A DNA stretch of 64,000 nucleotides, taken from Romanomermis culicivorax (lineage: Eukaryota > Nematoda > Enoplea > Mermithida > Mermithidae). This document shows positions 43,793 through 64,000 of the stretch, in pieces (position 1 is the stretch's first letter; each line of letters starts with the position of its first letter). The translations under genes were made by a program, and so were the position numbers. Under the pieces are notes generated by a model, which made no database searches, was not told the DNA's origin, and saw only the letters and a list, made by a program, of their open reading frames with translations. The DNA lies in assembly GCA_963922205.1 (NCBI GenBank), contig CAWUHX010000135.1, positions 744,001 through 808,000 on the forward strand, written 5' to 3'.

Positions 43793-44413
43793 TGTGAGAG
43801 CGCCCTAAATCAATCAATAATTAGGAAACTTACAGTAAACGGCGACGCTTCCTCAATCACACACACACCAGGCGAACCTACGTCATCCAATCCTACTGTA
43901 GACGTCGTGCCAAGACTCTTCGATTACGCAATCCAACTTTTTTATTTTCGTACGACTACGCTTATTAAGATTATGATCTAAGATTCTATGAAACTATGAC
44001 GTCAATGCTTCGTTTTTATGTCTTTTTTTATGTCTTTTTATTTATATAAATATGTTGGTTTTGTATGTTAAAATCACTTCAATATTTTATTAATAAATTC
44101 GGCTTCACTGCTTTCTCTGCTCTTTACCATCGTCGTAGGGTCGCTGGATAAATCGTCGATTGTTCCGTCCGGCTTTTGCGATTGTTGGAACCTGGAAGAA
44201 ATATATTTTCGTTGCGAGATTAAGATTTTCCTTTTAATTACCTTGGCGTTTTCCTAAATCGTCGCCGTTGCCGCCCATCCTTTGACGTTTTCGTTGACGA
44301 TTCTGAAGAAGAAAGAATAAATTAAGAACGTTTTAGTATTCAGTCCGATCTGCAGGTTATTCAGCTACAGTAACCTGTATTTTCCATTGACCTAAAAATT
44401 GACAAACCTTACA
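43793..44413 (+). repeat. 5' LTR of element 1
   Basis: TG...CA bounded. It contains a TATA-like TTTATATAAATATG at ~44041 and AATAAA at 44092-44097, suggesting U3-R boundaries in the usual order. It is 99.7% identical to the 3' LTR by eye. Confidence 0.95.
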
Positions 44414-44415
44414 AG

Positions 44416-44433
44416 TGGCGATTCGTGGCAGGA
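44416..44433 (+). other. Putative primer binding site of element 1
   Basis: TGGCGATTCGTGGCAGGA starts two bases after the LTR end and begins with TGG, the complement of a tRNA CCA end. The tRNA identity was not resolved. Confidence 0.6.
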
Positions 44434-44780
44434 CCGTCGACTACAATTTTCGGATCGAATTGGCGTTGAAGAAGCCTGAAAATAAAGAAGAATTAAAGAA
44501 GCACGAAGGCCGACGATTTTATTTGGCGATTTACCTGGCGTTTTTCGAATTTTTCGAGCTTGACGATTTTTTCTTGAAGAACGGCTGAAGAAGAAAATTC
44601 ACTTTTTTCGATTTTTGATAACGTAATCACCCGCGCTCGCCAGAATCCTACAGAATATCGACGAACCAGAAGTGGACGACCATTATTTGAACGTGCACCA
44701 CCAGAAGAAAATTTAGAAGAAGAAAATTTACGAATTTTGGTGAATCAAGAAGATCAAGTTTTAGTTGAAAATAGAGACCA
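44434..44780 (+). other. Leader region of element 1
   Basis: About 350 bp between PBS and the first gag ATG. The gag frame stays open upstream from about 44585 without an ATG, so a non-AUG or spliced start upstream of 44781 is possible but unsupported. Confidence 0.45.
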
Positions 44781-45720
44781 AATGGCCATGGAACAAATCA
44801 ACGATTTGCTACAAAATACAGTGGCTCGAGTTACAGAACTGTATGAAACCCGCCCGACGATTCCCACCGGTCTAGGTGATCTATCTCCATTTGCTGGCGA
44901 CCCGAACGATTTAAATTGGTCAGAATGGGAGAGAAAATTTTCGAGATTAGCGATTTTGGCAGGTGCTACCACCCTAAGTAGAAAAACGGCCCTGCTAGCA
45001 AATTATTTACGAGGCGCTGCGCTCAATTATTTTGGAGAATTAGAAGCAAGACAACCTCCATTGGCTGATTGGGATGCATGGACTGGTGCTTACCTAGCCA
45101 AATTTCCCGATAATCGCCAAATCGACATCAAATATGAGCAGCTAGTCGCCAGAACACAATCGTTGGGAGAACCCGTCGCCGTTTTCGCTGCTGATGTCCG
45201 TCGTCTAGCCAAACGAGCTTTTCCAACCTGGAACGGAGCTGGAGAACCTGATATAATTGTCAAAAATCATTTTATAAATCGGTTAATACCTGACATTCGT
45301 CGTTGGGTCCAAAACGCCGAACCGGATTCATTCGAGGCCGCCGTTGCTGAAGCTGAAAAACAAGAATTACGAGAAAAACAATATCATAGTGAAAATAATC
45401 CCTCATTTCAAGTTTTGGCGAATTCCGTCAGTCAGCTGACCAATTTGGTGCAACAGTTGAGTGCTGTCAACTTGGCCGGAAATTCGAATTCGGAAAGAAG
45501 ATATGAACAAAGGACGAATCAAAATACTAATTTCAACAGATGGCCACGGCAAGAAAATCGTTTTTGGCCTAGGAACAACGCGAGAGGTTTTCAGATTCAA
45601 TCGAACGGTCCCCAAGAGCCCAACAGGATGGGAGGTCGCCCAAATCGCGCGATAAATACCAACTTTAACCCCCAGCCGCTCGTCAGGAAGGTCCTCAGAT
45701 GGAACCGTTTCTTGTTATAG
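44781..45720 (+). CDS. gag: Gag polyprotein of element 1
   Basis: First ATG 44781 (MAMEQINDLLQN); 312 residues to TAG. The core (FAGDPNDLNWSEWERKFSRL, then ALLANYLRGAALNYFGEL) matches the Ty3/gypsy capsid pattern in which a short ORF assembles virus-like particles. The C-terminal part is Asn/Arg-rich and nucleic-acid-binding-like. The zinc knuckle (CYRCGRSGHFSSTC, CX2CX4HX4C) is NOT in this frame but in the overlapping frame of the following ORF, so making a capsid-nucleocapsid protein needs a +1 frame change in the overlap 45656-45720. A C-C-C-C-C run at 45669-45673 in that overlap would allow a CCC-to-CCC slip. A homopolymer sequencing error is the simplest alternative. Confidence 0.88.
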
Positions 45721-48700
45721 ATGTGGTAGAAGTGGGCATTTTTCTTCTACTTGCCCCATGCTCGAACGAAATCAAGATTCCAGATTTTCGAGTTCCCTGC
45801 GTAGCACGTGGCGTGGTGGACCGCCCCGAGTACAGATGCCGGCCCGAGGCGTTTCGAACCCTAGGAGTCCAGGAGATGCCCTTTCTGGAACCCGAGGAGT
45901 CAATAGTCAGCTTTGTCTTGCCGAGGCTAATGGGCCCAACATGTTAGAATTTGATTCTGACACCATCGCAGAACAGTCCGATCCCTGGAATTGCGATGAT
46001 TACGATCTGTATGGAAATTCCAATGTGAGGCCTCAGGCACATGTTTTTATGGCCCGATATAATGAATTTTATTTTGGAACCGGACACTCCACATTGGTGA
46101 GTAGTGGGACAGGATCTGAAGAAATTAGCGATAATCCCACTATTGCCTCCCATGGGTATACTGGCAATTATTATGAAGTCCCAGAACATTTAGAAAATGG
46201 TTATTTAGAAAGTGATTTTGATGAAACTTCTGATTCCGACTATTATGAAGACAGACGGCGCCGTCAGCAATTTGGAAATTCTGGGCAAGTCGAATCAGTT
46301 AAGGTTTTCATGAATACGGCTCAGACTGGAGGTCATAATTCCCACCGTCCCTCTGGAAGCCGCCCCATGGGTGAAGTTTATTTTATTTTTGATGGGCCTG
46401 CTGCAGCCAGTATTTGTAATTTATTTGATATTTTGAATTTTATGCATATGCACGAATTTGTAAGCCAGTCACGACGAGGAGTGATCGCTAGACAAGGACC
46501 CCTGGAATTTACGACAGAAGGATGGATCAATAAGTCGATACCATGGATCGTTCGGAGGCCCGAAGTCACCTCCCCAGAAGATCCCATGCGACATCAGTCA
46601 GCTCAAACTGACTCAAGAACGGATCCAGGAAGGCTAGAAGATTTACAATTTCAATCTAGAGCAGAAGCAGTTCAAAGAAGCAGAAAATGTGCCAGAAGAA
46701 GAGTTCCTCAACACCATTTCCAACAAATTCTCGGAAATTTCGTCTCACTTACCTCTTCTTATTTTTTGTTCGCCGCCGTGTTGTTACTTTTCTTTGTTGT
46801 GGGCTATTCGTTCAGCGAACCTTTCTACCAATGTGGCTCTTCACGAGGCGGTCATGCCTTGATGGTCCCGAAAACAACGCAATGTCGCCCTCCGCCACTG
46901 ATCAAAGCTGAAAAACACGAAATAAAGTTGCATATTTGGTCCACAAATGGACATTTGAATCAAATTATAGCCGTTCGCTGCGTTTTACGAAACCGAACCG
47001 TTTGTACGAACACAGGAGTTTTTGGATCCCGAGGAATTGTATCCGATACCACTTTGCAGAACATTGTCACTCCAGGTTTATGCAGACAAGTCTGGTCTGA
47101 TAAAAGCTATATGGGACGCAACTTAGCAGAAATTCAACCTGGAATTTGGACCACGAATCAGACGTTGCAAGTAGAATTCAAGTGGTGCTGCAAAGATACT
47201 TGTCGATCAGTTCAGAATTTACTCATGGAAGTTGGGACGATAGCAGCTGTTGATCACAAAGTAACTATTAGTGATCTTGGAGACACTGGTGGTTGCCCTC
47301 CTGTTGCTGGACAATGTTTGAATGCTGGAGGAACGATCATTTGGAAGGCCACCACCTTCGAGAATTATTGTCCATTGGCTCTAGTAGGAAATTTCACAGG
47401 ACACATCCTACAAGATCATGTGATAGTGGAAGAAGTTCAAGGAGCTTTTCAGCTCTCCGCGACAATTTCTACATGTCATCTACAAAACGCTTATTCCACT
47501 GAGCAAGGACCTATTCTGCAGTTCGAAGAAGATGTTCATCAACTCTTGGCCGATCGAGAAACATCAAATATCAATCCTGGATCACTCGAAAAAGATCCTA
47601 TGAATTCGAAATTTCAGTTTTTATACGACAAAATGATCGAGCAAGAAAGTCGAATTTTCCAAACTATTTGGACCGAATTATGTCATTCTTCAAAGCAACG
47701 TTTAGTGATGATTTGGCAACTTTTGAAACTCGATCCGACTCTAGGAGCCAGAGCTTTACTCATGCGAAATGACATTATCGCCTCTTTTGCCGGACAAGCT
47801 CTCATGGTTTGGGAATGCGAAAGAATCGTACCAGATCATATATTTTGGGACTACCAAATTAATCAAACCTGCTACGCCTATTTGCCAATTTCATTCCAAA
47901 ATCACACACTTTTTGTGGTTCCCGGAACGAAGGATGTGATTGGAACATCGCCTGTCGTAGATTGCAATCACCATGTGGTTGGTATCTATCATGAAACAGG
48001 AACTGGATGGAGAACATCTACTGGCCCAGTACATGTTGCAACGATCCCTTACGGTATCCAGTGGCAAGGCAGAACTAAATTACAAACTTTCAATACGCCT
48101 TCCTACTTTCACGATCAACAAGCTGGCGTTTTACACACTTTTGGCCTTATGAGAAGCTATTTTTCCAAAATTTCGATCATTGAGAGCGCTTTGAACCGAC
48201 TCACACGATATACAGCAGAACTATCATTGGATCCGACTGTGGTGTATCAGACTTTGGCTGGTACAGGGAAGATGGTAGCAGAAATCACGGAAGGAGCTGC
48301 CAACTCGTTGGAACATATCAGCACTACAGGCATGAAGAATTTAGTCACTACTACGGATTATTTGATTTCTGGCCCCCTACAACTCATCTTTAATATGCTC
48401 ATTGTCCTAGTAGTCCTAATCGTTTTACTCTTGATAGGATATTTTGTTTTTCGTTATTATCTCAAAGCAAGGATTGGGAAATGTTTTGGCTGCCGAAAAG
48501 ATGATCGTGAACCAATTGTTCGATTTTCTGATTTGCAAGAAACGGAAAGAGGAAATGAAGAACAGACGCGAAACGAACGTGCAGATCCCACAGCATCTGA
48601 AGTAGCTTATTCTACCATGCTGAAGAAAGCTTTTTCGCCTTGGCTAAGTCGCAAAACTTCATCAAAAGACGAATCTTCGACTTCGAATTGCAGTATAAGA

Positions 48701-51700
48701 CTCAGCACCCAACCGACTCAAGATCGATGCCCCACCATTGATGTATGGTTGAACGAAGACGTAGAAGAACCCATAACTACATTAGTCGACAGTGGTTCAG
48801 ATATCTCCCTTATTGGTTACAACTTAGCGATAAAAAGAGGATTTCAAATACTCCCCCCGATGATCAAAAGTTACAAGGTTTTTAATAGTCAAACTGCAGA
48901 AGTTACGGCTTCTTGTTGGGTTAGAATCTCGCTTTCAGTAGAGCAAAATTTGTCGTCACCGCCAGAATTTCTTCGAGTACATGTAGTCAAGAATTCCACC
49001 TATGATTTACTATTGGGAACTGATTTCTTACGACGATTCGCAAAAACTGAGCTACATTGGAAAGCCGCCCGTATCGATTTTGGTTCAATCACAGTACCCA
49101 TGAAGAACCCGAAAATTTTCTTACCCGATACCACCCGAGGAATAGTGATCTTGGCCGAGACAGTAGTCATTCCACCCCGAACTATTAATTTTGTGGATGC
49201 CCAGCTAGAGATGCCTTACACTCGATTGAATTCGTTGATTTTTGAACCGTTGTCGAAATTTGTACTCCGTTTTCACCTACAAGTCGCCTCTAGTTTAGTC
49301 AAACCCGACAATGGACTTATTCCGGTCAGCATTCTCAACACTACGGAAAGCCCTATTACCCTTTATCAAGGAATTAAAATTGGAAAAGTTCGAGCCTATC
49401 AGAATTTGTATTCTGATCAACCAACATCCTGCCATCAAAGAGTTTGTTTATCTCAAGATTTTTGCGAAAAGAATGAAGAAGAAAAAGCCGAGATTTTGTT
49501 AGCAAATCCTGAACTTCAGAGTGATATAAGAGAAGCTCACCTGACTGATCTCCAACGTCGCCAATTTTTCAGTCTCCTGGCCCGCTTTTCGACCTTGTTC
49601 GCCACCGACACTGATCTTGGACGAACCACTTTGGTCGAACATCGAATTGAAACCGGCGACAATGTCCCCATTCGACAAATCCCGTATCGAGCGCCTTATA
49701 AACAGAAAGAACAAATAAATGAAGAAGTTCAGAAAATGTTGGACAAAGGAGTTATCACTCCATCTCAAAGTCCATGGGCCAGCCCAGTCGTCTTAGTGCC
49801 TAAGAAGACAGGAGGATTTCGTTTCTGTGTCGATTATAGGAAACTAAATGCCGTTACCAAAAAGGATAGTTATCCATTACCTAGAATTGACGATATTTTT
49901 GATGCTGTTCAAGGAGCTACTCTATTTTCCACCTTAGATCAAGCTTGGGGCTATTGGCAGATACCAGTTGCTCAAAAAGATAAAGAAAAAACAGCCTTTA
50001 TTACCTACAATGGTCTTTACCAATTCGACGTTGTCCCTTTTGGTCTTTGCAACGCTCCTGCGACTTTTCAACGACTAATGGACCTCGTTTTGAGCGGGCT
50101 CCAGTGGTCGACTTGCCTTGTTTATCTTGACGACGTTTTGATCTTTGGTCGAACGTTCGACGAACACCAATCGCGGCTGGACGAAGTCTTTCAACGTTTG
50201 CAGGCGGCTGGTTTAAAACTTCGCCTGGAAAAATGTCACTTTCTAAAATCAAAAATTGCTTACTTAGGACATGAAATCTCGGCGCAAGGAATAAAACCAG
50301 ACGAAAACAAAGTTAGCAGCGTGAAGAACTTTACACCACCAACGAATATTGATCAATTACGCAGCTTTTTGGGCTTAGCAAGCTACTATAGACGTTTTAT
50401 ACAAGATTTCGCGAAAATTGCTTATCCCTTACATTTTCTACTGAAGAAAGCTCAGAAATATGAATGGACGAACGCCTGCCAACAAGCTTTTGACGCATTG
50501 AAAGAAAAATTAACGACTGCGCCACTTTTGATTCATCCGAATTTTCATGCACCTTTTATCCTATATACAGACGCTTCTAATGAAGGATTAGGCGCGGTTC
50601 TATCTCAAAAAACAGAAGACGGAGAGAAACCTATCGCTTATGCCAGCAGAAGCTTAACGAAAGCAGAGAAAAACTACGCAATTACAGAACAGGAAGCTTT
50701 AGCCGTAGTTTGGGCAGTAAAATATTTTCGCCACTATTTGTATCAGCAGCGCGTCACTGTTTTTACGGATCATTCAGCCTTACAGAGCGTTTTTTCAAAA
50801 CCAAACCCTTCCGGTCGTATAGCTAGATGGGGACTAGCATTGCAAGAATTTCAAGAACTTAACATCAAACATCGCGCTGGAAAAGTCAACAAAAATGCAG
50901 ACGCTCTTTCAAGAAACCCAGTACGTGAAGAAAACGACAAGAAAGGCGTAAAATTTCACATCAACGCGATTACCCGCTCACAAAAGTGTAGAAATAGGCC
51001 AAAAGACTCAATTTCCGTTATAGCAGAAGCAGGTTCCGAGAAAACATCGACTATAGCAAGAACTACTCTGGATGAAACTCAACCTACATGCTCGAAAACG
51101 CCTGATAACTTCTTTCCAATTCAAGAAGACGCGAATTTTGAAGAATTTTCAACTATAGAAAGAACTACCTTCGAGAAGAATCGAACTATAGTCACAGAAA
51201 AGGAAGAAAACGAGTTCAACACGAGTAATACAAAGGACTTTCGTAAAGCACAAAGAAGTGATCAATTTTGTAGTCAACTATTAGCTTATTTACAGTCTGA
51301 CTACTTGCCTGAAGATCTTAAGCAAGCCAAGAAAATTGTTTCACTAGCATCCCAATTTACGATAAAAGACGAAATTCTATATTTGGGCGATGCAGACGAA
51401 AACGAATTGAAATTAGAAGTTCCAGTTTCGAAGAAAGAAGAAATTTTAGAAGCTTGCCATGATGACGTTTTTTCTGGACACTTTGGTTTTACGAAAACAT
51501 TAGCAAAAATTCGCTTACGCTACCATTGGCCTACAGTATACCGCGACGTACGAGAACATTGTTTAAATTGTATCAGTTGCAGTATGAGAAAAACATCCAC
51601 AAAAAGAAATCGCGCCGCTCTTATGCCTATACCAGTCACAGGTCCATTTGACAGAGTGGCTATGGATATTTTAGGTCCTTTGCCTATAAGCGAAAATGGA

Positions 51701-52573
51701 AATAAATACGTCATTGTATTCAGCGAATATTTAACGAAATATGTGACAGCAGTGGCTCTACCAGAAACTACGACAGAAAAAGTTGCCCAAGCTTTTATGA
51801 CAGAAATAGTGTTACGTTTTGGCGCACCACTAACATTACTTTCAGATAGAGGAGCGAATTTCTTATCTGATCTAATGTTACGCATTTGTGAAATATGTGC
51901 AACGAGAAAAATAAATACGAGTCCCTACCACCCACAAACAGACGGACTAGTGGAGAGATTCAATAAAACGTTGGCTACAATTATCTCGATGTACATCAAT
52001 AAAAAACACAACGATTGGGATTCCTATCTGCCCTACGCGTGTTTTGCATATAACACGGCCACACAAAAGTCAACAAAGTACTCACCGTTTTTTCTTCTTT
52101 TTGGCCGCCATCCAAATTTGCCAATTGACGCCGCTCTTCATTTCTCGCCGGCTTTTTATCGAATCGATGTTGATGATTACGGCGACAACATCCAACGTCT
52201 TTTGTCCGACGCCTGGCAATCTGCCAAAGAAAACATAAAAATTGCACAGAATGCTCAGAAAAGTGCATACGATAAAAAAGAACATGGAGAAGAATTCGCA
52301 GTAGGAGAAGAAGTTTTTAAATATAGTCCAGTGGTGAAACCCAAACACTCGCCTAAATTTACTTTTCCCTGGACAGGACCATACGTCATTGTTGAAAAGA
52401 AGCATCCGACTTATCTACTGCAATTGAAAGAAAATCCGAGCCGCCCGCACGAAAAAATACATTTCAATATGTTGAAGAAGAAAAAAACAGACGACCATTT
52501 GTCCATGATTCAGACTTCGATTGTACCATCAGACCAGTCTCCAGAAGTCTTATCTACATGTTTGTCCATGTGA
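45656..52573 (+). CDS. pol: NC-Env-like-PR-RT-RNaseH-IN polyprotein of element 1
   Basis: The frame opens at 45656; first ATG 45758, giving 2271 residues. In order: zinc knuckle at ~45690-45755; an acidic low-complexity stretch; env-like module 46740-48480; retropepsin (LVDSGSD at 48783-48803, then DLLLGTDFL); reverse transcriptase (FRFCVDYRKLN ~49815, LVYLDDVLIFG with the DD at ~50126); RNase H (LYTDASNEGLG ~50563); integrase HHCC zinc region ~51460-51580, catalytic Asp ~51664, Asp ~51845 (LLSDRGANF), Glu ~51951 (GLVERFNKT); and the GPY/F module (WTGPYVIV ~52372) typical of Ty3/gypsy integrases. No stop interrupts 2271 codons and the key residues are present, so it may be active. Whether the ATG at 45758 or frameshifting from gag is used is unknown. 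Confidence 0.95.
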   Translation: MPTLTPSRSSGRSSDGTVSCYRCGRSGHFSSTCPMLERNQDSRFSSSLRSTWRGGPPRVQMPARGVSNPRSPGDALSGTRGVNSQLCLAEANGPNMLEFDSDTIAEQSDPWNCDDYDLYGNSNVRPQAHVFMARYNEFYFGTGHSTLVSSGTGSEEISDNPTIASHGYTGNYYEVPEHLENGYLESDFDETSDSDYYEDRRRRQQFGNSGQVESVKVFMNTAQTGGHNSHRPSGSRPMGEVYFIFDGPAAASICNLFDILNFMHMHEFVSQSRRGVIARQGPLEFTTEGWINKSIPWIVRRPEVTSPEDPMRHQSAQTDSRTDPGRLEDLQFQSRAEAVQRSRKCARRRVPQHHFQQILGNFVSLTSSYFLFAAVLLLFFVVGYSFSEPFYQCGSSRGGHALMVPKTTQCRPPPLIKAEKHEIKLHIWSTNGHLNQIIAVRCVLRNRTVCTNTGVFGSRGIVSDTTLQNIVTPGLCRQVWSDKSYMGRNLAEIQPGIWTTNQTLQVEFKWCCKDTCRSVQNLLMEVGTIAAVDHKVTISDLGDTGGCPPVAGQCLNAGGTIIWKATTFENYCPLALVGNFTGHILQDHVIVEEVQGAFQLSATISTCHLQNAYSTEQGPILQFEEDVHQLLADRETSNINPGSLEKDPMNSKFQFLYDKMIEQESRIFQTIWTELCHSSKQRLVMIWQLLKLDPTLGARALLMRNDIIASFAGQALMVWECERIVPDHIFWDYQINQTCYAYLPISFQNHTLFVVPGTKDVIGTSPVVDCNHHVVGIYHETGTGWRTSTGPVHVATIPYGIQWQGRTKLQTFNTPSYFHDQQAGVLHTFGLMRSYFSKISIIESALNRLTRYTAELSLDPTVVYQTLAGTGKMVAEITEGAANSLEHISTTGMKNLVTTTDYLISGPLQLIFNMLIVLVVLIVLLLIGYFVFRYYLKARIGKCFGCRKDDREPIVRFSDLQETERGNEEQTRNERADPTASEVAYSTMLKKAFSPWLSRKTSSKDESSTSNCSIRLSTQPTQDRCPTIDVWLNEDVEEPITTLVDSGSDISLIGYNLAIKRGFQILPPMIKSYKVFNSQTAEVTASCWVRISLSVEQNLSSPPEFLRVHVVKNSTYDLLLGTDFLRRFAKTELHWKAARIDFGSITVPMKNPKIFLPDTTRGIVILAETVVIPPRTINFVDAQLEMPYTRLNSLIFEPLSKFVLRFHLQVASSLVKPDNGLIPVSILNTTESPITLYQGIKIGKVRAYQNLYSDQPTSCHQRVCLSQDFCEKNEEEKAEILLANPELQSDIREAHLTDLQRRQFFSLLARFSTLFATDTDLGRTTLVEHRIETGDNVPIRQIPYRAPYKQKEQINEEVQKMLDKGVITPSQSPWASPVVLVPKKTGGFRFCVDYRKLNAVTKKDSYPLPRIDDIFDAVQGATLFSTLDQAWGYWQIPVAQKDKEKTAFITYNGLYQFDVVPFGLCNAPATFQRLMDLVLSGLQWSTCLVYLDDVLIFGRTFDEHQSRLDEVFQRLQAAGLKLRLEKCHFLKSKIAYLGHEISAQGIKPDENKVSSVKNFTPPTNIDQLRSFLGLASYYRRFIQDFAKIAYPLHFLLKKAQKYEWTNACQQAFDALKEKLTTAPLLIHPNFHAPFILYTDASNEGLGAVLSQKTEDGEKPIAYASRSLTKAEKNYAITEQEALAVVWAVKYFRHYLYQQRVTVFTDHSALQSVFSKPNPSGRIARWGLALQEFQELNIKHRAGKVNKNADALSRNPVREENDKKGVKFHINAITRSQKCRNRPKDSISVIAEAGSEKTSTIARTTLDETQPTCSKTPDNFFPIQEDANFEEFSTIERTTFEKNRTIVTEKEENEFNTSNTKDFRKAQRSDQFCSQLLAYLQSDYLPEDLKQAKKIVSLASQFTIKDEILYLGDADENELKLEVPVSKKEEILEACHDDVFSGHFGFTKTLAKIRLRYHWPTVYRDVREHCLNCISCSMRKTSTKRNRAALMPIPVTGPFDRVAMDILGPLPISENGNKYVIVFSEYLTKYVTAVALPETTTEKVAQAFMTEIVLRFGAPLTLLSDRGANFLSDLMLRICEICATRKINTSPYHPQTDGLVERFNKTLATIISMYINKKHNDWDSYLPYACFAYNTATQKSTKYSPFFLLFGRHPNLPIDAALHFSPAFYRIDVDDYGDNIQRLLSDAWQSAKENIKIAQNAQKSAYDKKEHGEEFAVGEEVFKYSPVVKPKHSPKFTFPWTGPYVIVEKKHPTYLLQLKENPSRPHEKIHFNMLKKKKTDDHLSMIQTSIVPSDQSPEVLSTCLSM
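46740..48480 (+). other. Envelope-glycoprotein-like module inside the element 1 polyprotein
   Basis: A hydrophobic segment (YFLFAAVLLLFFVVGYSF, ~46755-46808) resembles a signal peptide or anchor. It is followed by ~515 residues rich in Cys with five N-glycosylation sequons (NRT, NQT, NFT, NQT, NHT), and then a second membrane segment (~48380-48465, LIVLVVLIVLLLIGYFVF) with a short tail containing KCFGCRK. This layout is that of a viral type I fusion or attachment glycoprotein. No obvious furin site was seen between the two segments, and the virus family of origin is not recognised. In frame with upstream nucleocapsid and downstream protease, it would put both under membrane topology control. 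Confidence 0.7.
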
Positions 52574-53418
52574 AGAAAGAAAAACAAAATAGATAAGTAC
52601 TTGTATATAACACATATTATTTATTGAGAAGGTTCATTTTTATTCTTTTATTGAGTTGTGTCTGCTTAAATATTTTTATATTCTTTCGTCAAAGTATTTT
52701 TCATATATGCTTTTTCGGTAAATTGTTATTTTATTTGTGTGCTCATTTATACTTTGTTATTAACTAATTTTTGCATCTAAAGAACCCAACGTTATACGAA
52801 GAATTTAAGCGAAATTGCGCTCCCGTATCTCACGAATCTATGCGACATATAGAAAAATTGATCGCCGGTCAAAAACATCTTGATTAGGCGATGCTTTACA
52901 GCAACCACCCCATTTGTTGCCGAAGAGAACCGAAAATTTGTCCAAATAACAACCGGAACGCCGAATATTTTCAAACCAAAACCGCCGCCACCGATGAGCA
53001 ATGCCTCAGGAGGTAATGTCCCACTGATTCCTCCTCATGCCCGTGTATCAACGAATGAACATTATTTGATCAATTCAACGCCTGAATCTTTCTTGCAATC
53101 AGTTATATTCTCGTCGACCCAAAATGCACGGTTGAACGTCTCCAGTTTAATGGTAGCTAACATCAAAGGAGCCATTTAGGGAGTCGATAGCCACTTTCGT
53201 TATGCCGCCGTATTATACCGAAATGACGCCCACCGTCACCTACAACGCCAATTGTGACGTGACCCCCGGTTGTTACTCAAACAAATTGGTGCCCTAATGG
53301 CCAAAATTCTACAATATACTTACGAGAACCGCATTGTTCGTCGTCCTCGTCCCCAAATTGCCGTCCCAAATCTTGCCAAATGAGGCTGGGGACAGCCTTT
53401 TCATCAGCGCCGGAAGAA
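52574..53418 (+). other. 3' region of element 1 before the LTR, with decayed coding sequence
   Basis: 52574-52780 is AT-rich and non-coding. 52880-53383 reads as one frame with two in-frame stops (TAG 53177, TGA ~53255), of host-like composition, beginning after a TTTACAG acceptor-like site. A second open stretch in another frame covers 52783-52886. None is recognised. It may be captured host exons or a decayed accessory ORF. No strong polypurine tract was seen just before the 3' LTR. Confidence 0.45.
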
Positions 53419-54039
53419 TGTGAGAGCGCCCTAAATCAATCAATAATTAGGAAACTTACAGTAAACGGCGACGCTTCCTCAATCACACACACACCAGGCG
53501 AACCTACGTCATCCAATCCTACTGTAGACGTCGTGCCAAGACTCTTCGATTACGCAATCCAACTTTTTTATTTTCGTACGACTACGCTTATTAAGATTAT
53601 GATCTAAGATTCTATGAAACTATGACGTCAATGCTTCGTTTTTATGTCTTTTTTTATGTCTTTTTATTTATATAAATATGTTGGTTTTGTATGTTAAAAT
53701 CACTTCAATATTTTATTAATAAATTCGGCTTCACTGCTTTCTCTGCTCTTTACCATCGTCGTAGGGTCGCTGGATAAATCGTCGATTGTTCCATCCGGCT
53801 TTTGCGATTGTTGGAACCTGGAAGAAATATATTTTCGTTGCGAGATTAAGATTTTCCTTTTAATTACCTTGGCGTTTTCCTAAATTGTCGCCGTTGCCGC
53901 CCATCCTTTGACGTTTTCGTTGACGATTCTGAAGAAGAAAGAATAAATTAAGAACGTTTTAGTATTCAGTCCGATCTGCAGGTTATTCAGCTACAGTAAC
54001 CTGTATTTTCCATTGACCTAAAAATTGACAAACCTTACA
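53419..54039 (+). repeat. 3' LTR of element 1
   Basis: Same 621 bp as the 5' LTR, offset exactly 9626 bp, ending CTTACA, followed by the TATC target copy. Confidence 0.95.
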
Positions 54040-54043
54040 TATC

Positions 54044-54368
54044 TTTAGTGTTGTAAACCACACACAAACGGACGCCTGAATTTTAATATTATAGATTAGC
54101 AAAAATATGCTTCAAAGGTATGATATGGAGCTGTTGTAAAAGTGAATTTTCTACCTTATCGTAAACTAGACAAATATAATCTCTGACCCCGGTAAACTCA
54201 TAGCATTCTTGGTGTATCTCAGGCTTAAAGTGCTAAAATCGCATTAATCGACAAGCCTAAAATTTAACCATATCACTGCACATTATCTAATTTTCATACA
54301 ATCATAAATAAATGCTATAAATAATCAGTGATTTACTAAAAGTGAATATAATTTTTTGCAGTAGCTAT
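54044..54368. other. Short spacer between the two retroelements
   Basis: Unique AT-rich sequence; nothing recognised. Confidence 0.4.
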
Positions 54369-55153
54369 TGTCAGAGGGTCAATTCCTCTGACCTTTGGTC
54401 CTCTAACTATCTCACTTTTATTCTCTAAAGCTCCTTTGTTGTTAAAGTGATTTCATTTATTCTTGGGCAAACAAACCAGTAAAACGGTTTGTGTCATATA
54501 CATTTTTGGCTCAAAAATACATAAATGGTGACGTGAATGTTTTGCATGCATCTGGCAAGTCGATGTTAGACGCGTTGCAGTTTTGTTTCATTATTATTAT
54601 TATTACGTCTTATTGTGAGCCGGTCGCGTCTCTTTGGTGTCTTCGAAGAAGACCTGTGGTGACTGTGGAAGGATAGCGGACGCGTTCATTGTTCGTATTG
54701 TTGTACATTTTCGATTTCGCATCGCGGACTCGTCTAGAGGAACTTCCGCGACCTGAGAAGAGCTTTCGACGTTCCAAACTTGGTCGAGGAGAGGAGTGAG
54801 TGTTTGTTCAGCAGGTAGACAGACTATTTTCTTAGGCTTTCAGCTTAGGTCGTGGATTAAGACACCCGAAGGTCCCTGGGACTCTGTGTACAGGGACAGA
54901 AAGAAGGGTCAGCAACTTAGGGAGGAAATCAGTGTTGTGTTTGCATTTTGGCACCAAGTATTCCGTTTATTACTTGCTCACCGTTGTATTCTCACTTTTG
55001 TCATTTCCAAAATAAATATCATTATTTCTCAAGTCTCTGTGACCTGCAGTAGGACTGTATCTAGCACCGGGTTAGCGTCAGGGGCTGTACTAGATTGGAT
55101 CTCCCGAGAACCGCAGCTAGGTAGCCGAGGGCATACGAGCACATGATACGACA
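54369..55153 (+). repeat. Putative 5' LTR of element 2
   Basis: It begins TGTCAGAGG (with CCTCTGAC just after, a small hairpin) and ends GATACGACA. AATAAA lies at 55011-55016. The region has no long ORF and sits directly before a TGG-type primer site. With no 3' copy in view, its start is uncertain by tens to hundreds of bases. Confidence 0.55.
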
Positions 55154-55184: not shown

Positions 55185-58070
55185 ATGAAGAAAGCATCGA
55201 AACCGAAATTAACGGTACGAAAACAACCTGGCAGACGACCAAAGGTAACATTATTACAAACCGAAGTAAATAAAGAGGATCAAACCGAACGAATGGCAAA
55301 TATGGAGGCGACTATCGAGCAAGTAGTGAAGAAATTTGCGAATTTACCCGAGGATAGTGATAAAGATCAAACTATTGATGCGGAAACATATGATTATGCG
55401 GATCACCGGATACAGATGTCCTCTGATTCAGTATCATCCTTTGAGAAAATTAGTTTACCTCCCGAAACGAATGCGGTATCATTTTATAACTCGAGATATA
55501 CGCCTACAGTACCGAAAACTGACGCGAAGGTCGACATTGAAGCGAAACCAAAAAACGAGATGGAAAGGATAACGAGTGGAAATATACAGGATGTGGCCAC
55601 TTTAGCCATCCTGGAATCCATGCAAAGAGCCGTGGACAAATCAACTAATGCCGTTAATGTGGAAAGAACGAAGGCGGCGTTACGAGAACAAGAAATGTTG
55701 GATCAACTCATGCGGGAAAGAGTGGAACGCAAGTTATGGGAAGAAAAATTTCGTGAACAAGAACAACAAAATTCAAGAAAGATAATGGAAGAAGTTGAAA
55801 AGCAAATGCGGGAACTGATGAAGAAAATGGACAAAAGATCTGACGAAAGAATATTGAATACTGGAGATATGGAAATACTTCCGTCTGAAACGGTCAAAGA
55901 CCATTTAGACAGGAGTTTGGAAAGAAAATTGAACTGGTTCGAAAACCACTTGGCTCAGGCGCAGGCTCAAGGTGCCCAACACCGAATGATGGAAGAAGAT
56001 ATACCAACCACGTCATGGAATCAAGGAAGAGAGCAACCCATATTGGGAGGAAGTCCTCGAAATCGGCAAGAGTATGGAAGATATTGCGAAAATCCTGAAA
56101 AAAGAATGAAGATAATTTTAAGCCGAATGAAAAGTAAAATGGAGGCTGCAGAAATACTCAATTTTTTCGCCTGTTTGGAGGGCACATTCAAGCCTGAAGA
56201 CACAGAAGAACTGAGAATTGAAGTGCTTTGGCGTTGTTGCGATTTTGAAACATCGACTTATGTAGACAAAAATGGCAGCTATGAAGAAGGAAAAGCAAGC
56301 GTAATCAGAATGATCGCCCCCAAAATGGATACTCCTGCACTTAGAAGGGAATTACATGATATGAAAAAACGAAAAGGGGAAACTACAAAGGATTTTTTGC
56401 GACGAATAAAGACGTATGTACATTTATTGAATTACGAAAAAACAGAAAACGAAAGAAATCGAATTGTTATCGAAACATATTTTCACAAGGCTCCAGTATA
56501 CATCCAAACTCGAATGGAAGGTCGGCTCCACGAATTCAAAAATATCGCCTCTTTGGCAGAATTCGTAAATAAATTGAAAGCCGATACGACGGCCTGGAAG
56601 GAATTCAGCGAAGAACAAGAAGACGGCGAAGACAATCGGCTGAATCGAGTCTATGAAAACCGGAGATTTAATAATTTGCAGATTCGTCAGCAGGATAGTA
56701 GTATAGGTCAACAACAACAAATTGCAAGGCCCCAGCAAATTTTTCCACCTCCACCAGCATTTCAAAACCCCGTATCTCAACAAGATATCATGAAGATGGT
56801 CAATGATGCAATCAGGAATCAGGGCCCTCCAGCTCCTAATCGTTGGGGAGTCAATAATAATTCTAACAATGTTCAATACAACAATCTACCTGATCGAGTT
56901 TTGGGAAATCCATATCATCGACCGTATTGTTCATACCATAAGTCCAATAGCCACTCGTCCGAAAACTGTTTTATTCTTCACCCGGAACTGATTCAACCAA
57001 CGGATCAGGGGAGGCCGTGGAATCATGGCAACAATTTCTATAATCGAAATTTCGACCATTGCGGTGGTTTCGTGAATCGTGGACGAGCCGGTTTTGCAAA
57101 TTTTGGTCAACGGATGCCATACCATAATAATATAGAACAAAATCCAAATGCGGCGTATTATTATCGTCAAAATAATGTCCCGCAGCCACCACCGAATATC
57201 GCACCACCAACAACATGGCAACCGATAAATAATCCTCCGAATAATTCCATAAATGTTATAAATTCACAAGAGGCTAAAAAACATGATAAACCAGAAATTA
57301 TAGCCCTAGACGGAGTACTTATAGAAAATTATGAGTTAAGTTTGGCGAATGTTATCAGCTCCACTTCAGAAGCAAAACCTAGACTCACCAATGATAACGA
57401 ACATTTATTTTTGGAAAATTTTTGCAAATGTCAACCACTGTTAATACCCGTCAAAATAGGTGGAGAAGAATTTAAAGCTCTAATCGATACGAGAGCACAA
57501 TCTAGTTTTATGAGGACAGATACAGCGTCGAGATTACTGAACATATCAAAGACAAAATTTCCGATTTAGAATTCAGTAGTAACAGCGGTTGGAAAACGCG
57601 TAACAACATATGGTCCTACATTCATATACGTTGGAACTGGTTTTGGAAATTTTCTTGCTAGATTCGCATTGCTAGATAACCTAAATGAAGGTATTATATT
57701 GGGTCTAGATTTTCTAAGCCATCCTAGTATACAGGCATCTATTGATTTTCGAAATGGCTACATACGCCTAGCGAATGTAGAAAGACAGATAATTAGTGAA
57801 ATGCTATTCGACGATACGCAAATACCGCCGCGGTTGCCAATTCCCGCAAATCCGATGGTTTTGGATTATGTACCCATAAAGGAGGAAATCAAGGAGGAAG
57901 ATTTGCCTGAGTTAGAAAGTGATGACGATCAAGAACAAGTAATGCGAATTACCGAAATGAACGAAGAGACCTTTATTTGGACAAAAAATGGGACATATAT
58001 TCCCCCGAATACCACTTCCTTTGTACAAGCTGTGGTTTGGCCACAGAAAGATTGGACAAAGGGTCCATAG
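55185..58070 (+). pseudogene. gag: Gag-protease of element 2, interrupted by an in-frame TAG
   Basis: ATG 55185. Residues 1-120 are Lys/Thr-rich; ~125-230 is a charged coiled-coil-like helix ([20 protein letters not shown]); ~300-480 is a capsid-like region; then a Gln/Pro/Asn-rich stretch with the zinc-knuckle variant [14 protein letters not shown] (CX2HX4HX4C). The C-terminus enters a retropepsin fold ([11 protein letters not shown]), but the catalytic motif reads DTR instead of DTG, and TAG at 57567-57569 stops the frame. The same frame resumes for 166 codons (LDNLNEGIILGLDFL is the second half of the protease) to 58070. The combination argues for a dead protease unless the stop is suppressed. 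The next ORF is in the -1 frame relative to this one. Confidence 0.85.
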
Positions 58071-61000
58071 TGATAGAAGAAACGGGGAAGAATACTTTGT
58101 TCGATGTTGATGCCTCAATTGTGGATGCCAGGGATAATAATTTCCAGATTCTACTAATAAACGAAACCAACAAGGGGATAAAATTGCGTAGTAACGAGCT
58201 AATAGCGAAATCCAAAACGAAATTCATGGGGCCAGAATTTGACGAAAAGATACATCAACTTCAATCAGAACCGCAAATTCAACAACAGAGCGAGCCAGAA
58301 TTTATCAAAATCATAACGCAGCTAGTGAAGGAATCAAGTATTGATCGACAAGGGCAACAACAGCTCATGAACGTCCTACTTAAACACAGGCACGCATTTA
58401 GTATGAAGAACGACCCTCTGACGATGACTCATGAGGCACAACATAGAATCGACACAGGAGACGCGTTGCCGGTCCAAAAGCACTACTGGAGAGCCCCTAT
58501 AATGCAAAGAGATATTATCCGTGAGCATGTAAAGGATATGATGGAAAAAGGAGTCATTGAGCCCTCTAGAAGCCCTTGGGCCGCACCATTGTTTTTAGTG
58601 GGCAAGAAAGATGGCACGTGGAGACCAGTAGTCGACTACAGAGGAATCAATCAAGTGACAAAGGACGATAAATTCCCGATACCACGAATCGACGATTATT
58701 TAGATGCGTTAGGAGGTGCGCGCTATTTTTCGACTCTGGATCTAAAGTCCGGATATTGGCAGGTACCCATGCACTCAGAATCGAAAGAAAAAACAGCATT
58801 CATATGTCAAGACGGTCTGTTCCAGTTCAAGGTGATGCAGTTCGGTTTAAAAAATGCTCCCCCAGAATTTCAGCATCTCATGGAGCGAATTCTTTATCCA
58901 TATGTGTGGAAAATATGTTTAGTATATATTGACGACGTGATAATCTTTTCAAAAACGGTCGAGGAGCATTTACAAAATATAGAGACTATTTTTCGATGTC
59001 TCACAAACGCAAACCTTACATTGAAACCTGACAAATGCTCCTTTATGCCAGCCAGCGTAAAATTTTTAGGCCACATATTGGACAAAAATGGAATGTCAGT
59101 TGACCCACAGAAAATAGAAGCGGTAAGAAATTTTGAAGTACCCAGGTCCATCAAGCAGCTGCAAAAATTTTTAGGACTAGTACAATGGTCCAAACGATTC
59201 ATACATAATTTAGCTTTTATCGCCCAGCCTTTATTTAAAGCCCTCGTAAAAAAGAATAGGAAAGAGAAGTTTGAACTTTCGGAAGAACAGTTAACGGCTT
59301 TTAAAGGGGTAAAAAACGCCCTAATGACGGCACCCTTTCTGCGGTACCAAGTATTCGATGGATCGGCGAAGTTTGTAATTCAAACGGATGCATCGGGGAC
59401 AGCGATAGGTGCGATTCTATATCAGGAAACGGAAAACGATCGCTGGACGATAGCATATTCGAGTAGAGTTTTAAACGATGCCGAAACAAGGTATTCCACA
59501 ATGGAGAGAGAGTGTTTAGCCGTAGTTTATGGATTCAAACAATATCGACATTACGTTATGGGGTTTAGGGTCACGATCAGAACAGATCACAAACCACTTA
59601 CCTGGCTCTCCGCAGAGAAACAACAAAATCAGAGGCTATTGAAATGGGCTTTATATATTGGACAGTTCAACTACACATTTGAATACGTAGCCGGACGCGA
59701 AAATGCCTTTGCAGACTTCTTATCAAGATCAGAGGAGAAAGAAAAGGTCCGAAACAAGAAACCAGAAGGTAACGAGGAAATCGAAGACAAAAAAGTGGAT
59801 ACGGAACCCGAATGCATGGCGGTAACAAGAGCCATGACAAGACAGATGCTTGAACCAGAGACACAAGAAGTATTTATTGATCCTCCACCACCAACTCAAC
59901 AAGAAATAGACCAAACGCCAGAGGAAGCAAAAAAGGAGTCTGACTTATTCTCTCTGGAACTGATCAAGAAGCAACAGCGATTAGATCCGAAGTTGGTGGA
60001 TATTTTTCGGAATATCGGTGAAAACAGCTCAAAGAAATACTTCAACAGTTTTCACTTGGAAAACGAAGTATTGTATCGGGAAAGTATCCACGGAAGAAGT
60101 CAATTAGTAATTCCTACCAAGCTTAGGCATCTTGTTTTACACCAATACCACGGCGATACCTTGATGGGACATCAAGGGATAGATAGAATCATTGCCGCAA
60201 TTGGGAATAAATTTTGGTGGTCAAATATGGAAGACAACATCATTAAGTGGATAAAATCCTGCGTCGTATGCCAATTGTGTCGCCCAATAGCGAATCCAGT
60301 TCAACCACTAAACCCCATACCTGTTTCCTACCCTTGGGAAATAGTAGCCACCGATGTGGTTAGTATTTCGCCCTTACGAGAAAAGAGGCCATATGTTATC
60401 GTATTCATGGATTATTTCACGAAATGGGTGGAGGCCAAGTGTATCCCCGATCAAAAAGCCGATACTATAGTAAAGGCGTTCATGGAAAAAGTAATTTATA
60501 CTCACGGGGCGCCAAAACACTTGCTGAGCGACCAAGGCTCAGCATACATGTCCGAATTAATGCGCAAGGTGTGTGACCTCCTCAAAATAAAGAAAATAAA
60601 TACGACACCATACCACCCGCAATGTAATGGTATGGTGGAAAGATTTAATAGAACGCTAATTGAGCAGATTAGGAGAGTGGCAATTACCGACCCGGACGAT
60701 TGGCCCCATTATTTGGAACAGATTTTATTTGCGTATCGGATTACGCCTCACAAAACCACGAAAAATTCCCCCCATAGCCTATTATACGGACACGAGGCAA
60801 GGTTCCAGATAGACAACGAGATAGCAAGGCCAGTAATTATTCAGAATAATTACGACACCTATAGATACATGTTAACAGAGCACCTACTTAACATGTATAA
60901 AATCATAAACGAAAACCATAAAAAATCGGCGGCCGAAAGAAAACTACAGTATGATAGGAAGGCTCGCGAAAAGACGTTCCAAACGGGTGAACTTGTCCTC

Positions 61001-61198
61001 TATCAGAAAGGAATTATCAAAGGGAAGGCCGACACTACAAATGACGGTCCCTATGAAGTAATTGAAACACAAAATTTAGATAAGAATGTCATAAAAATTC
61101 GCTGCGCTGGGAAACCAGATTCGCGTGTACAAATAGTTTCCGTAAATCGCGCAATGCCTTTTGTTACGCGGACTCCCGATTTTTACTGTAGCTTGTAA
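57977..61198 (+). CDS. pol: Reverse transcriptase-RNase H-integrase of element 2
   Basis: An open frame of 1073 codons whose upstream limit (a TTG) is not a real start; it overlaps the gag-protease frame by ~95 nt and would be reached by a -1 shift near 58040-58070 (no canonical slippery heptamer seen). It shows RT ([12 protein letters not shown] ~58619, [11 protein letters not shown] with DD ~58929), RNase H ([11 protein letters not shown] ~59380), an integrase zinc finger ([13 protein letters not shown] to CVVCQLC ~60140-60280), catalytic Asp ~60351 (VATDVV), Asp ~60528 (LLSDQGSAY), Glu ~60638 (GMVERFNRT) and a GPY motif (NDGPYEVIE ~61034). All polymerase and integrase residues are intact, so decay is confined to the protease. 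Confidence 0.95.
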
Positions 61199-61594: not shown

Positions 61595-63621
61595 ATGGCC
61601 ACGTCCAGTTTCGTCGAAGTAGACAATAGTTTCGGGCAACCGCAAGATCGCCAAGATAATACAAATTTCCAACTTAGTAGTAAGTGTGAAAAGGTTAAAA
61701 TATGTGGTAGAAATTTTTTATTCGGAATGAGACTCTAAATTGACCGCGCGGCAATTTATATGCCGAGGATTTTGGGTATTTGAGAGACTGATCAACTCAC
61801 CTATGTCCAAATTTATTCTTGTGCATTTGAGTCGTTTTGTTTCGAAATTATCACAAAAATTGTAGTTAAAAAATTGTATGAAAATTTTAAGATTACAATG
61901 TTCGAAGATTGGTACGCTCAACAGATATTTTTAATTATTTTACGTCGTTGTTCGGTGTGCCTCATGCGGCCATCGAGGAACCGTTATTTCTTGCGCCCGA
62001 GAACATAAAAGCATTTATTAAGGCGATAAATCAGTCAAAATTCAGAGGACGAGTAGTCATCGCATTAGATACCGAAAGTGGGAGGAAACCCAAAACGGCG
62101 TGTTCAAAACCCAGCGACGCCTTGCGGCTCTTGACAATTTCGACCATATGTGGAAAAAACTTTATAATAGATTTAAAGTTCTGGGACAGAGAACATTTTC
62201 ACAAGGTATATAACACAATTTTTCGCGAAGAAAATATTATCGTCGGTTTTCATATCCGAGAAGACATCACGCTAGTCTTGACTAGATTCGGGTATTTAGA
62301 TCAAGAAAAAGAATTAGCCCGAAAAAAGCGTGACAATATCGATTATATCTTGTCTTGCTGCGTTTACGATCTAGAAATTGTGTTAGCCGAGATGAAAGAT
62401 AAAGCAAAGACAAGAATGGTAGGAATTAGCCCGGAAGCCCTGAACTTAAAGGCCTTTATGACGGAAATTTTGTTTTTGTGGGCGGATGCTTTTAAGATTT
62501 CGTGGGGCCAATTGAGCTCACTAGAATTTCGGCAGTTAATGGAAGCGGACAAATTAAACATAGAAGTTTTACGATACGCGATGCTCGATGCGCGCGGGTC
62601 TCTTCTATGTTTCCTGGCGTTGTTACGATACGGGTTCGCCAGTGATGTGCAAAATTGCTTCAAATTATATCCTCACGATACGATGGAGCCAGAGTTGGTG
62701 GCTGATTTAGCCCGAAGGTTCCGAGAAACGTTCGAAGACAAATATACGGACCCACAGTGGAAAGGCGCGTACGGAGTAGAAGAGATGACGGGCAACATCA
62801 ATGCGTTATATTTCATGATGCGCGGGGAAGCAATATCAACTTATAAATTATCCGAAGAGCAAGCGTCGGGAAGTTTCTATTGTCCACCGCATTTCTCGAA
62901 CAGCGAAAAAGACCTGCAACCAGTACCCCGCGGTTGGTACCCGTGGGTAGAAAGAAGAGTAAAAGCATCACGGAAAAGAAAAGATACTGAAGAATCAGAA
63001 GTAACGCCCACCAACGATTGGGATCTAGAAGATATACTAGCTGCACGGCAGTTCGGACGGCCAATAGAGCCACGAGAAATGGAAATGAAACAAGGAAGGT
63101 GGCCTAATAAAGTGATCCATTTTATGAATAACTTGCGAGAACAGGTATCGTCGCTCAAGGACTACTACCATAAAAAGATCAATCGATCAATCGTCCCTGT
63201 GGTCAAGGAGTTGTACGAGAAGAATATAAATCCTCTTATCTATTTCTTGTGGCCTCACTCGGCACAAGAATGGAGATCTTGGGTCCCTGGGTTTACTTCG
63301 GGTATGTGGTCCACCGTATGGAGAAACGAACAAGAGCGAATCGAATTTATGAAATCGATGGGCCAAGATCTTTTGAATAACAAAATGACCGAACAAACAG
63401 AACAAATGATGGAACGATATCCGAAGGTACGCACGCAGAAGTCCGTCCAAAATATTTTCTGTGTACTACCTATAAAATGGATACCGCGCTCCTTGAAAGA
63501 ACCCGAAGAAGAAATAGAAACGGATCTACGCGATAACTCTATTTATTTTTTGAATCATAACTTTTATAACGTGTTTCATTTTTTGCATGTTCACGCGGCT
63601 AGCAAAAATCTCATTTATTGA
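61595..63621 (+). CDS. DEDDy-type 3'-5' exonuclease-like protein carried downstream of pol in element 2
   Basis: Exon 1, 61595-61679 (ATG, 28 codons plus one base), is spliced by a GTAAGT...TTTTAAG intron (61680-61891) to exon 2, 61892-63621. The join is in phase and supplies the ATG that exon 2 lacks before its catalytic motif. The product is 604 residues. Exo I is ALDTES (D88, E90), Exo II IREDI (D153), Exo III YAMLD (Y257, D261): the DEDDy set of RNase D/WRN/MUT-7/EXD-type nucleases that trim nucleic acid 3' ends. Residues ~300-604 are charged and not recognised. A TGA ends the frame, but the same frame is open again to the window end. It lies where env is found in retroviruses. Activity and role are inference. 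Confidence 0.75.
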
Positions 63622-63999
63622 AATGTTTCCGCGTCTATATTCGAGGCGAAGGACCTATGGGTCCCCAGCACCTCTGCAACTTTCAAGTCTGTAACTAAGT
63701 GGGACGATTCGGATCTGTTTCCCCAAGTAGAAGTTGTGGTCCCGGCTAGCCAGGGTCCTACAGAAGAAACTTCGAAGGAGCAGACAGAAGACGTACCCTC
63801 TAAAATCGAGAATTTGAATGTTTCAGGTATCGAAATGGATCAGGAAAAGCCCGTGGAAGTAATCATCGCGGATTCCCCCATGGCCAATGCGCCCGCTGAC
63901 GATAGCAAAAATGTCGTGGAAGAAGAGAAATTGATGGAGATAGTCAAACCCGAATGCGAGATACAGCCCAATGTGGAAAAATTGACGGAGCAGATAAAG
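63622..63999 (+). CDS. Open reading frame continuing in frame after the exonuclease TGA (partial)
   Basis: 126 codons without a stop, in the same frame as the exonuclease, running off the window. The sequence is acidic (Glu/Asp/Val/Pro-rich), low in complexity and not recognised. Three explanations fit: readthrough of TGA, a small intron that removes the stop (a weak GTGTTT donor at 63572 and a TTCGAG acceptor near 63645 would keep the phase), or a nonsense mutation in a longer protein. Confidence 0.5.
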
Positions 64000-64000
64000 G

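What the first reader, a model, noticed from the sequence alone, without database searches (positions are those of the whole stretch)
61595..63999. A retroelement appears to carry a spliced DEDDy exonuclease gene in the env position
Element 2 has a 5' LTR and full pol, and no 3' LTR is seen before the window ends, so the exonuclease-like gene would lie inside it. The nuclease has all five DEDDy residues (D88, E90, D153, Y257, D261) and an intact, phase-consistent intron, like a spliced retroviral third gene. The DEDDy family includes MUT-7, which acts in nematode transposon silencing. A captured relative could interfere with small-RNA defence or process element RNA/DNA ends. The function is speculation; the motifs and position are seen.
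Basis: partly seen in the sequence, partly recalled or inferred. Interest (0 to 1): 0.88.

Follow-up and report, generated by a model that had tools for sequence, protein, structure and literature searches.

The report
Retrotransposon carrying its own exonuclease gene
A jumping gene found in many copies in a mosquito-parasitic worm carries, where retroviruses keep their envelope gene, a gene for a nuclease-like protein that natural selection appears to preserve about as strictly as the element's own replication enzymes.

Summary
Confirmed and extended. The window is very probably Romanomermis culicivorax (assembly size and contig number match v2). Element 2 is a 13.6 kb Ty3/gypsy-type element: CTAT target repeats, 785-bp LTRs (5' 54369-55153; 3' beyond the window at equivalent 67167-67951; 99.0% identical), gag, pol, then the nuclease gene, inside the LTRs. 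LTR pairs enclose the gene in four of five other copies checked. Splice sites: GTAAGT in 40 of 40 alignable copies, TTTAAG in 43 of 43. All five DEDDy residues are intact in 39 of 43 fetched copies (all chosen stop-free). dN/dS of the nuclease region is 0.056 over 44 copies; in four copies 0.035, against 0.055 for pol. This copy is truncated by an in-frame stop; 20 of 43 others read on to about 1389 residues. Pfam does not recognise the domain at its cut-off and AlphaFold failed, so the assignment rests on motif and profile alignment (0 of 200 shuffles score as high). DEDDy third genes are known from LTR elements of bdelloid rotifers (PMC5408684); my paper searches listed none in nematodes. 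Function (RNA processing or counter-silencing) is inferred.

The parts
54365..54368 (.). Left target-site repeat CTAT; the same four bases follow the 3' LTR outside the window
54369..55153 (+). 5' LTR, TG...CA, 785 bp; 8 differences (7 transitions) from the 3' LTR at C135:811167-811951 (window-equivalent 67167-67951)
55185..57569 (+). gag and start of protease, one frame; ends at an in-frame stop inside the protease in this copy
   Evidence: (aspartyl protease match below cut-off, 744-784); Romanomermis models P0007, P0008 match gag
57977..61198 (+). pol: reverse transcriptase, RNase H, integrase (Ty3/gypsy order)
61595..61679 (+). ORF3 exon 1
   Evidence: same exon in Romanomermis gene models; donor GTAAGT in 40 of 40 alignable copies
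61680..61891 (+). ORF3 intron, more conserved than the third codon positions beside it
61892..63621 (+). ORF3 exon 2 as read in this copy, to its stop; DEDDy-like domain about residues 51-250 of the 575 counted from 61894
62068..62076 (+). ExoI motif DTE (D88, E90)
62263..62265 (+). ExoII aspartate (D153), the same in 43 of 43 fetched copies
62575..62589 (+). ExoIII motif YAMLD (Y257, D261)
63622..64000 (+). Same frame after this copy's stop; read through in other copies (charged, then proline/glutamine-rich C-terminal part)

Best explanation
ORF3 is a gene of the element itself: a Ty3/gypsy-type LTR retrotransposon, very probably of R. culicivorax, in which the place after pol holds a DEDDy-type 3'-5' exonuclease gene instead of env. 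SHOWN: position inside paired LTRs; many copies; conserved splice sites; five DEDDy residues kept; strong purifying selection. INFERRED: the full-length genomic RNA keeps the intron and gives Gag and Pol, while a spliced RNA gives ORF3, so the enzyme is made apart from the Gag-Pol precursor and works in the cell as an accessory protein. Its nuclease domain trims RNA (or cDNA) 3' ends, held on RNA or an RNP by the long charged C-terminal part. Most likely substrate: RNA, either the element's own 3' ends or host small RNAs derived from it. I put an active nuclease at about 0.8, RNA rather than DNA as substrate at about 0.65, and counter-silencing rather than self-processing at about 0.4.
For: LTR pair around the gene with target repeat and purine run. 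Other copies checked, five: C27, C19, C574 with pairs at 99.2-99.6%, C237 at 99.4% although its LTR is only 70% like this one; C474 not resolved. 76 scored places at 85-100% identity out of 2947 first-look candidates. Three of 42 annotated Romanomermis proteins join gag or pol pieces with ORF3 pieces in the window's order. Splice sites GTAAGT 40 of 40 alignable (3 did not align), TTTAAG 43 of 43. Catalytic residues kept in 41, 42, 43, 43, 42 of 43. dN/dS 0.056 for the nuclease region over 946 pairs of 44 copies, 0.034 over the 353 pairs below 92% protein identity; in the same four copies 0.035 for the nuclease region, 0.055 pol, 0.058 RT, 0.054 integrase, 0.105 gag. Profile alignment score 27.6 against shuffle mean 13.7, maximum 22.7 of 200, with all five residues in register; a plain multiple alignment puts the same residues together. 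UniRef names two relatives '3'-5' exonuclease domain-containing protein'.
Against: Pfam PF01612 matches only 1 of 26 family proteins scanned, below its cut-off (15.6 against 23.6 bits), and not the ORF3 of one further genomic copy; none of the 80 PF01612 places in the genome coincides with one of the 76 scored ORF3 places. PDB sequence searches gave nothing or one unrelated match at E 0.97. AlphaFold gave mean pLDDT 38. hhalign's own probability is only 12%, and a smaller profile gave 4.5%. In the earlier set of annotated models the last aspartate is kept in 9 of 13 and the ExoI glutamate in 8 of 10. The catalytic residues do not stand out: 62% of the domain's sites are invariant, and the first aspartate varies more than the mean site. 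No RNA data: splicing and expression are not shown. The 43 fetched copies were all chosen from the 51 of 76 places without stops.
Confidence: 0.72

Rival explanations
1. A catalytically idle DEDD fold that binds RNA, as reported for Maelstrom and EXD1 (PMC5408684, passages), used for RNP assembly, nuclear export or regulation rather than cleavage.
For: Very low similarity to active families. Four of 43 copies have one catalytic residue changed. In C. elegans Cer1 a spliced accessory protein is required for genomic RNA export (PMC10309623, passages). The long charged C-terminal part suits binding (inference).
Against: All five residues are kept in 39 of 43 copies, which an idle fold would not need; but most other sites are kept too.
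Confidence: 0.18
2. A host gene that merely lies beside, or was trapped once by, a retrotransposon.
For: Only a 5' LTR was visible in the window.
Against: Paired LTRs enclose it in five of the six copies checked, this one included; 76 scored places; gag/pol-ORF3 gene models elsewhere; dN/dS as low as pol.
Confidence: 0.01
3. The DEDDy reading is a chance motif, and ORF3 is an unknown protein, for instance structural or Env-like.
For: No Pfam, PDB or AlphaFold support at threshold.
Against: Motif in 3 of 200000 shuffles; profile score above 200 of 200 shuffles with the five residues in register; no transmembrane-like segment in the 575-residue part; PF01612 is the only Pfam match of P0014 up to E 10 and spans its ExoI and ExoII (E 0.014, alignment not seen).
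Confidence: 0.08
4. A DNA-directed exonuclease that trims or proofreads element cDNA ends during reverse transcription or before integration.
For: DEDDy enzymes act on single-stranded DNA too (PMC5408684, passages); selection as strong as on pol in four copies.
Against: Expected from a separate spliced RNA, so it would not enter particles as part of Gag-Pol (inference); charged C-terminal part points to RNA (inference).
Confidence: 0.25

Closest known systems
Juno and Vesta LTR retrotransposons of bdelloid rotifers with a DEDDy ORF3 (PMC5408684: I saw parts 1 and 2 of 5 of the text, and passages)
   Same: LTR element; RNase D-like DEDDy gene as ORF3 after pol in place of env; ORF3s said to be expressed from spliced messages; acquired independently at least twice
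   Different: Different phylum; no sequence match among the relatives found, though rotifer sequences were not fetched for a direct test; here about 1389 residues with an internal intron; their motif is DEED; Juno and Vesta pol has a dUTPase, not found here in the parts scanned. Their Discussion says of these ORFs that intragenomic evolution shows no significant departure from neutrality; whether the DEDDy ORFs were tested apart is not clear from what I read
Terminons (Athena-like) of bdelloid rotifers with DEDDy ORFs (PMC6431247, passages)
   Same: Retroelement with an accessory DEDDy gene
   Different: Penelope-like, up to 40 kb
Cer1 of C. elegans with the CERV gene (PMC10309623, passages)
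   Same: Nematode LTR retrotransposon with a spliced accessory protein
   Different: CERV shares the reading frame of gag in exons 1-3 and is required for genomic RNA export; the word exonuclease does not occur in that paper
RNase D / NrnC / diDNase (PF01612) and MUT-7 / Nibbler exonucleases
   Same: D-x-E, D, Y-x3-D signature in register with RNase D and NrnC
   Different: Below the Pfam cut-off; no second MUT-7 domain found; a longer stretch between ExoII and ExoIII

Membership tests
Ty3/gypsy LTR retrotransposon (Metaviridae) | RT-RNaseH-integrase order in pol | tested here: met
Ty3/gypsy LTR retrotransposon (Metaviridae) | Paired LTRs TG...CA, short target repeat, purine run before the 3' LTR | tested here: met
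Ty3/gypsy LTR retrotransposon (Metaviridae) | Aspartic protease between gag and RT | tested here: inconclusive
   Match below cut-off; broken by a stop in this copy
Ty3/gypsy LTR retrotransposon (Metaviridae) | tRNA primer site after the 5' LTR | not tested
   A TGGTGACC stretch follows the LTR; no tRNA was compared
DEDDy 3'-5' exonuclease (PF01612) | Five residues D-x-E, D, Y-x3-D in order | tested here: met
DEDDy 3'-5' exonuclease (PF01612) | Score above Pfam's cut-off | tested here: not met
   1 of 26 scanned family proteins matched, at 15.6 of 23.6 bits
DEDDy 3'-5' exonuclease (PF01612) | RNase H-like fold | tested here: inconclusive
   AlphaFold pLDDT 38; second job not accepted
DEDDy 3'-5' exonuclease (PF01612) | Metal-dependent 3'-5' exonuclease activity | not testable with these tools
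   needs bench work
MUT-7 | Exonuclease domain followed by a Mut7-C domain (recalled) | tested here: not met
   No Pfam match up to E 1 in the 785 residues after the first 575 of another copy nor in the 575
Bdelloid DEDDy ORF3 group | Sequence closer to rotifer ORF3 than to cellular enzymes | not tested
   Rotifer sequences were not fetched; the profile search up to E 1 gave 40 proteins, all named R. culicivorax
Env glycoprotein | Transmembrane anchor | tested here: not met
   No hydrophobic segment in the 575 residues; the part after codon 575 was not tested

The most novel reading that the evidence does not exclude
A high-copy animal retrotransposon depends on a captured, spliced DEDDy exonuclease that works in trans on RNA to blunt Dicer/RdRP siRNA silencing in a nematode without Piwi or 22G-RNAs; and the ORF3 intron, kept in genomic RNA and far more conserved than neighbouring third codon positions, is itself a cis-acting RNA signal (export, packaging or splice balance). 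With the rotifer cases this would be convergent recruitment of one enzyme class by LTR elements in separate phyla.
Probability: 0.22. Interest if true: 0.82.

Novelty: new variant of a known kind. Interest (0 to 1): 0.6.

Why it matters
Rodriguez et al. left open whether such third genes do anything for the elements that carry them. Here 44 copies show the nuclease region under strong purifying selection, and in the four copies compared it is at least as strong as on reverse transcriptase and integrase, in a second animal phylum and with no relative outside R. culicivorax in the searches made (which reach only proteins sharing short exact words). That points to a working part rather than a passenger, and makes its role (RNA end processing or counter-silencing) directly testable in a worm whose small RNAs have been profiled. 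The conserved intron offers a second, independent handle.

Tried and rejected
Host-gene reading: rejected. The 604-residue product as the complete protein: rejected. ORF3 tail as extra spliced exons: the annotated models P0005, P0006, P0007 and P0031 skip parts of this region, but 20 of 43 genomic copies read straight through, so I take those junctions as probably model artefacts. A first hhalign run used a wrong option and found nothing; repeated. AlphaFold on the 575 residues failed. Structured intron: consensus folding energy of 10 sequences is below 200 of 200 column shuffles, but the single sequence is not unusually stable (z -0.58; -0.62, and 0.00 and 0.34 for two other copies), 2 of 53 pairs have changes on both sides and Rfam has no match: structure not established. 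A check for pol just upstream in 40 copies gave 0, but the fetched stretches begin within about 490 bases of exon 2 and cannot reach pol, so it says nothing. No match to ORF3 in the phage collection or NCBIfam; PHROGs gave only weak scattered matches. C474 copy: the downstream piece matches the LTR in part, the upstream piece does not; not resolved.

Full report
What the window is. All 42 relatives of the nuclease found in the protein collection are named Romanomermis culicivorax. The window's assembly has 359,112,060 bases in 595 contigs, the size (359.1 Mb) and scaffold number (595) given for R. culicivorax v2 in PMC10879605 (passages). The window is C135:744001-808000.

Anatomy of element 2. 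The 5' LTR is 54369-55153 and begins TG, ends CA. The 3' LTR lies outside the window at C135:811167-811951, window-equivalent 67167-67951, with 8 differences in 785 positions, 7 of them transitions. CTAT stands on both sides, and a run of purines stands before the 3' LTR. Between the LTRs come gag with the start of the protease (55185-57569), pol with RT, RNase H and integrase (57977-61198), and ORF3. In this copy the gag-protease frame has an in-frame stop and ORF3 has another at 63619-63621; it looks like a fairly young but broken copy. Five other copies were checked. Three had LTR pairs 99.2, 99.4 and 99.6% identical around ORF3. C237, whose LTR is only 70% like this one, had a pair 99.4% identical at 138013-138838 and 150835-151660 around its ORF3. 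For C474 only a partial downstream match was found.

ORF3. Exon 1 (61595-61679) and exon 2 join in phase across a 212-base intron. Six Romanomermis gene models (P0002, P0003, P0004, P0011, P0021, P0037) show the same residues S-N at the joint. In 43 genomic copies, all taken from the 51 of 76 scored places without stops (counted), the acceptor is TTTAAG in 43 and the donor GTAAGT in 40, the other 3 not aligning. Counted from 61894, frames run 1360 codons in 20 of the 43 copies and 599-1358 in the other 23; here 575. With exon 1 the long form is about 1389 residues. After the nuclease region come a part without Pfam match, a charged part rich in arginine, glutamate and serine, and a proline/glutamine-rich end.

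Is it a DEDDy nuclease? By single-sequence search, no: Pfam, NCBIfam and PDB give nothing for the window's protein, and 1 of 26 scanned family proteins reaches PF01612, below its cut-off. By profile, yes: the family aligned to 125 RNase D-like sequences scores 27.6 against 13.7 on average (maximum 22.7) for 200 column shuffles, with D-x-E, D and Y-x3-D in register; a plain multiple alignment does the same. The pattern occurs in 3 of 200000 shuffles, though I wrote the pattern knowing the sequence. hhalign's own probability is 12%, with a shallow profile on the ORF3 side. AlphaFold on 8 sequences failed (pLDDT 38), and a second job with the mixed alignment was not accepted. I hold the DEDDy assignment at about 0.9, activity at about 0.8.

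Is it a gene of the element? Beyond position: 3 of 42 annotated proteins join gag or pol pieces with ORF3 pieces, P0008 with four blocks in the window's order. Over 44 copies dN/dS is 0.077 for 575 codons and 0.056 for the nuclease region; divergence there by codon position is 0.064, 0.027, 0.214. In the window and three complete copies the nuclease region has 0.035, pol 0.055, RT 0.058, integrase 0.054, gag 0.105. The choice of stop-free copies leaves out decayed ones and may lower the values. All five residues are intact in 39 of 43.

The intron. Between this copy and five divergent ones the intron differs at 12.6% of positions, the spacer before exon 1 at 24.9% and third codon positions of the first 200 codons at 43.3%; 61760-61839 is 94-95% identical over nine divergent copies. 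Gapped positions were left out. Genomic RNA must keep the intron, so a cis-acting role is a natural guess; a structure is not established.

How it most likely works. In retroviral fashion the unspliced RNA would serve Gag and Pol and a spliced RNA ORF3. A separately made enzyme with a charged tail most plausibly acts on RNA in the cell. R. culicivorax is reported to lack Piwi and 5'-triphosphate small RNAs, clade I to have an RRF-3-type polymerase, and R. culicivorax to have DNA methylation machinery (PMC4323106 and PMC8821070, passages). So if silencing is the target, it is the Dicer-type siRNA route, shown in that paper for Trichinella, rather than the MUT-7 route of C. elegans. Trimming of the element's own RNA 3' ends is the main alternative. 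Nothing here separates them.

What is known. DEDDy third genes in LTR elements were described in bdelloid rotifers, with the guesses of RNA 3'-end processing and of a silencing role, and a Discussion statement of no significant departure from neutrality for these ORFs (PMC5408684). A 2019 paper calls DnaQ-like exonuclease domains well-known accessories of LTR elements (PMC6338049, passages). In the listings of my searches I saw no report in nematodes (library of open papers only). Hence a new variant of a known kind: new phylum, no relative found outside R. culicivorax, longer and intron-bearing, and under demonstrable selection.

Noticed in passing
43793-54039: Element 1: LTRs 43793-44413 and 53419-54039, 99.7% identical. 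Its second frame (45758-52573, 2271 residues) carries a viral fusion glycoprotein domain (Monjiviricetes_fusion, 8.5e-18, residues 555-768) before the RT, so an env-like part seems to sit between gag and pol in one frame; hydrophobic segments at 324-356 and 867-904.
   Followed up: partly
61680-61891: The ORF3 intron is much more conserved among divergent copies than neighbouring third codon positions.
   Followed up: partly
G000, for example C69:277875-278369, C101:824477-824971, C158:182213-193990: 80 PF01612 places in this genome, all over the cut-off, none at one of the 76 scored ORF3 places; 12 of 80 sit in frames of 608-610 residues, and three on C158 are 5,778 bases apart: a second multicopy DEDDy family, possibly also mobile.
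   Followed up: no
57567-57569: Element 2's protease is broken in this copy by an in-frame stop.
   Followed up: no
L011:4557-4623, L013:4620-4686, L015:4573-4639: A 67-base piece resembling part of the LTR (82%) lies in reverse orientation between ORF3 and the 3' LTR.
   Followed up: no
24293-25310: Overlapping self-matches at 67-75% identity suggest an old tandem array.
   Followed up: no
35216-39979: Open frame of 1587 residues on the + strand without any clear Pfam match.
   Followed up: no
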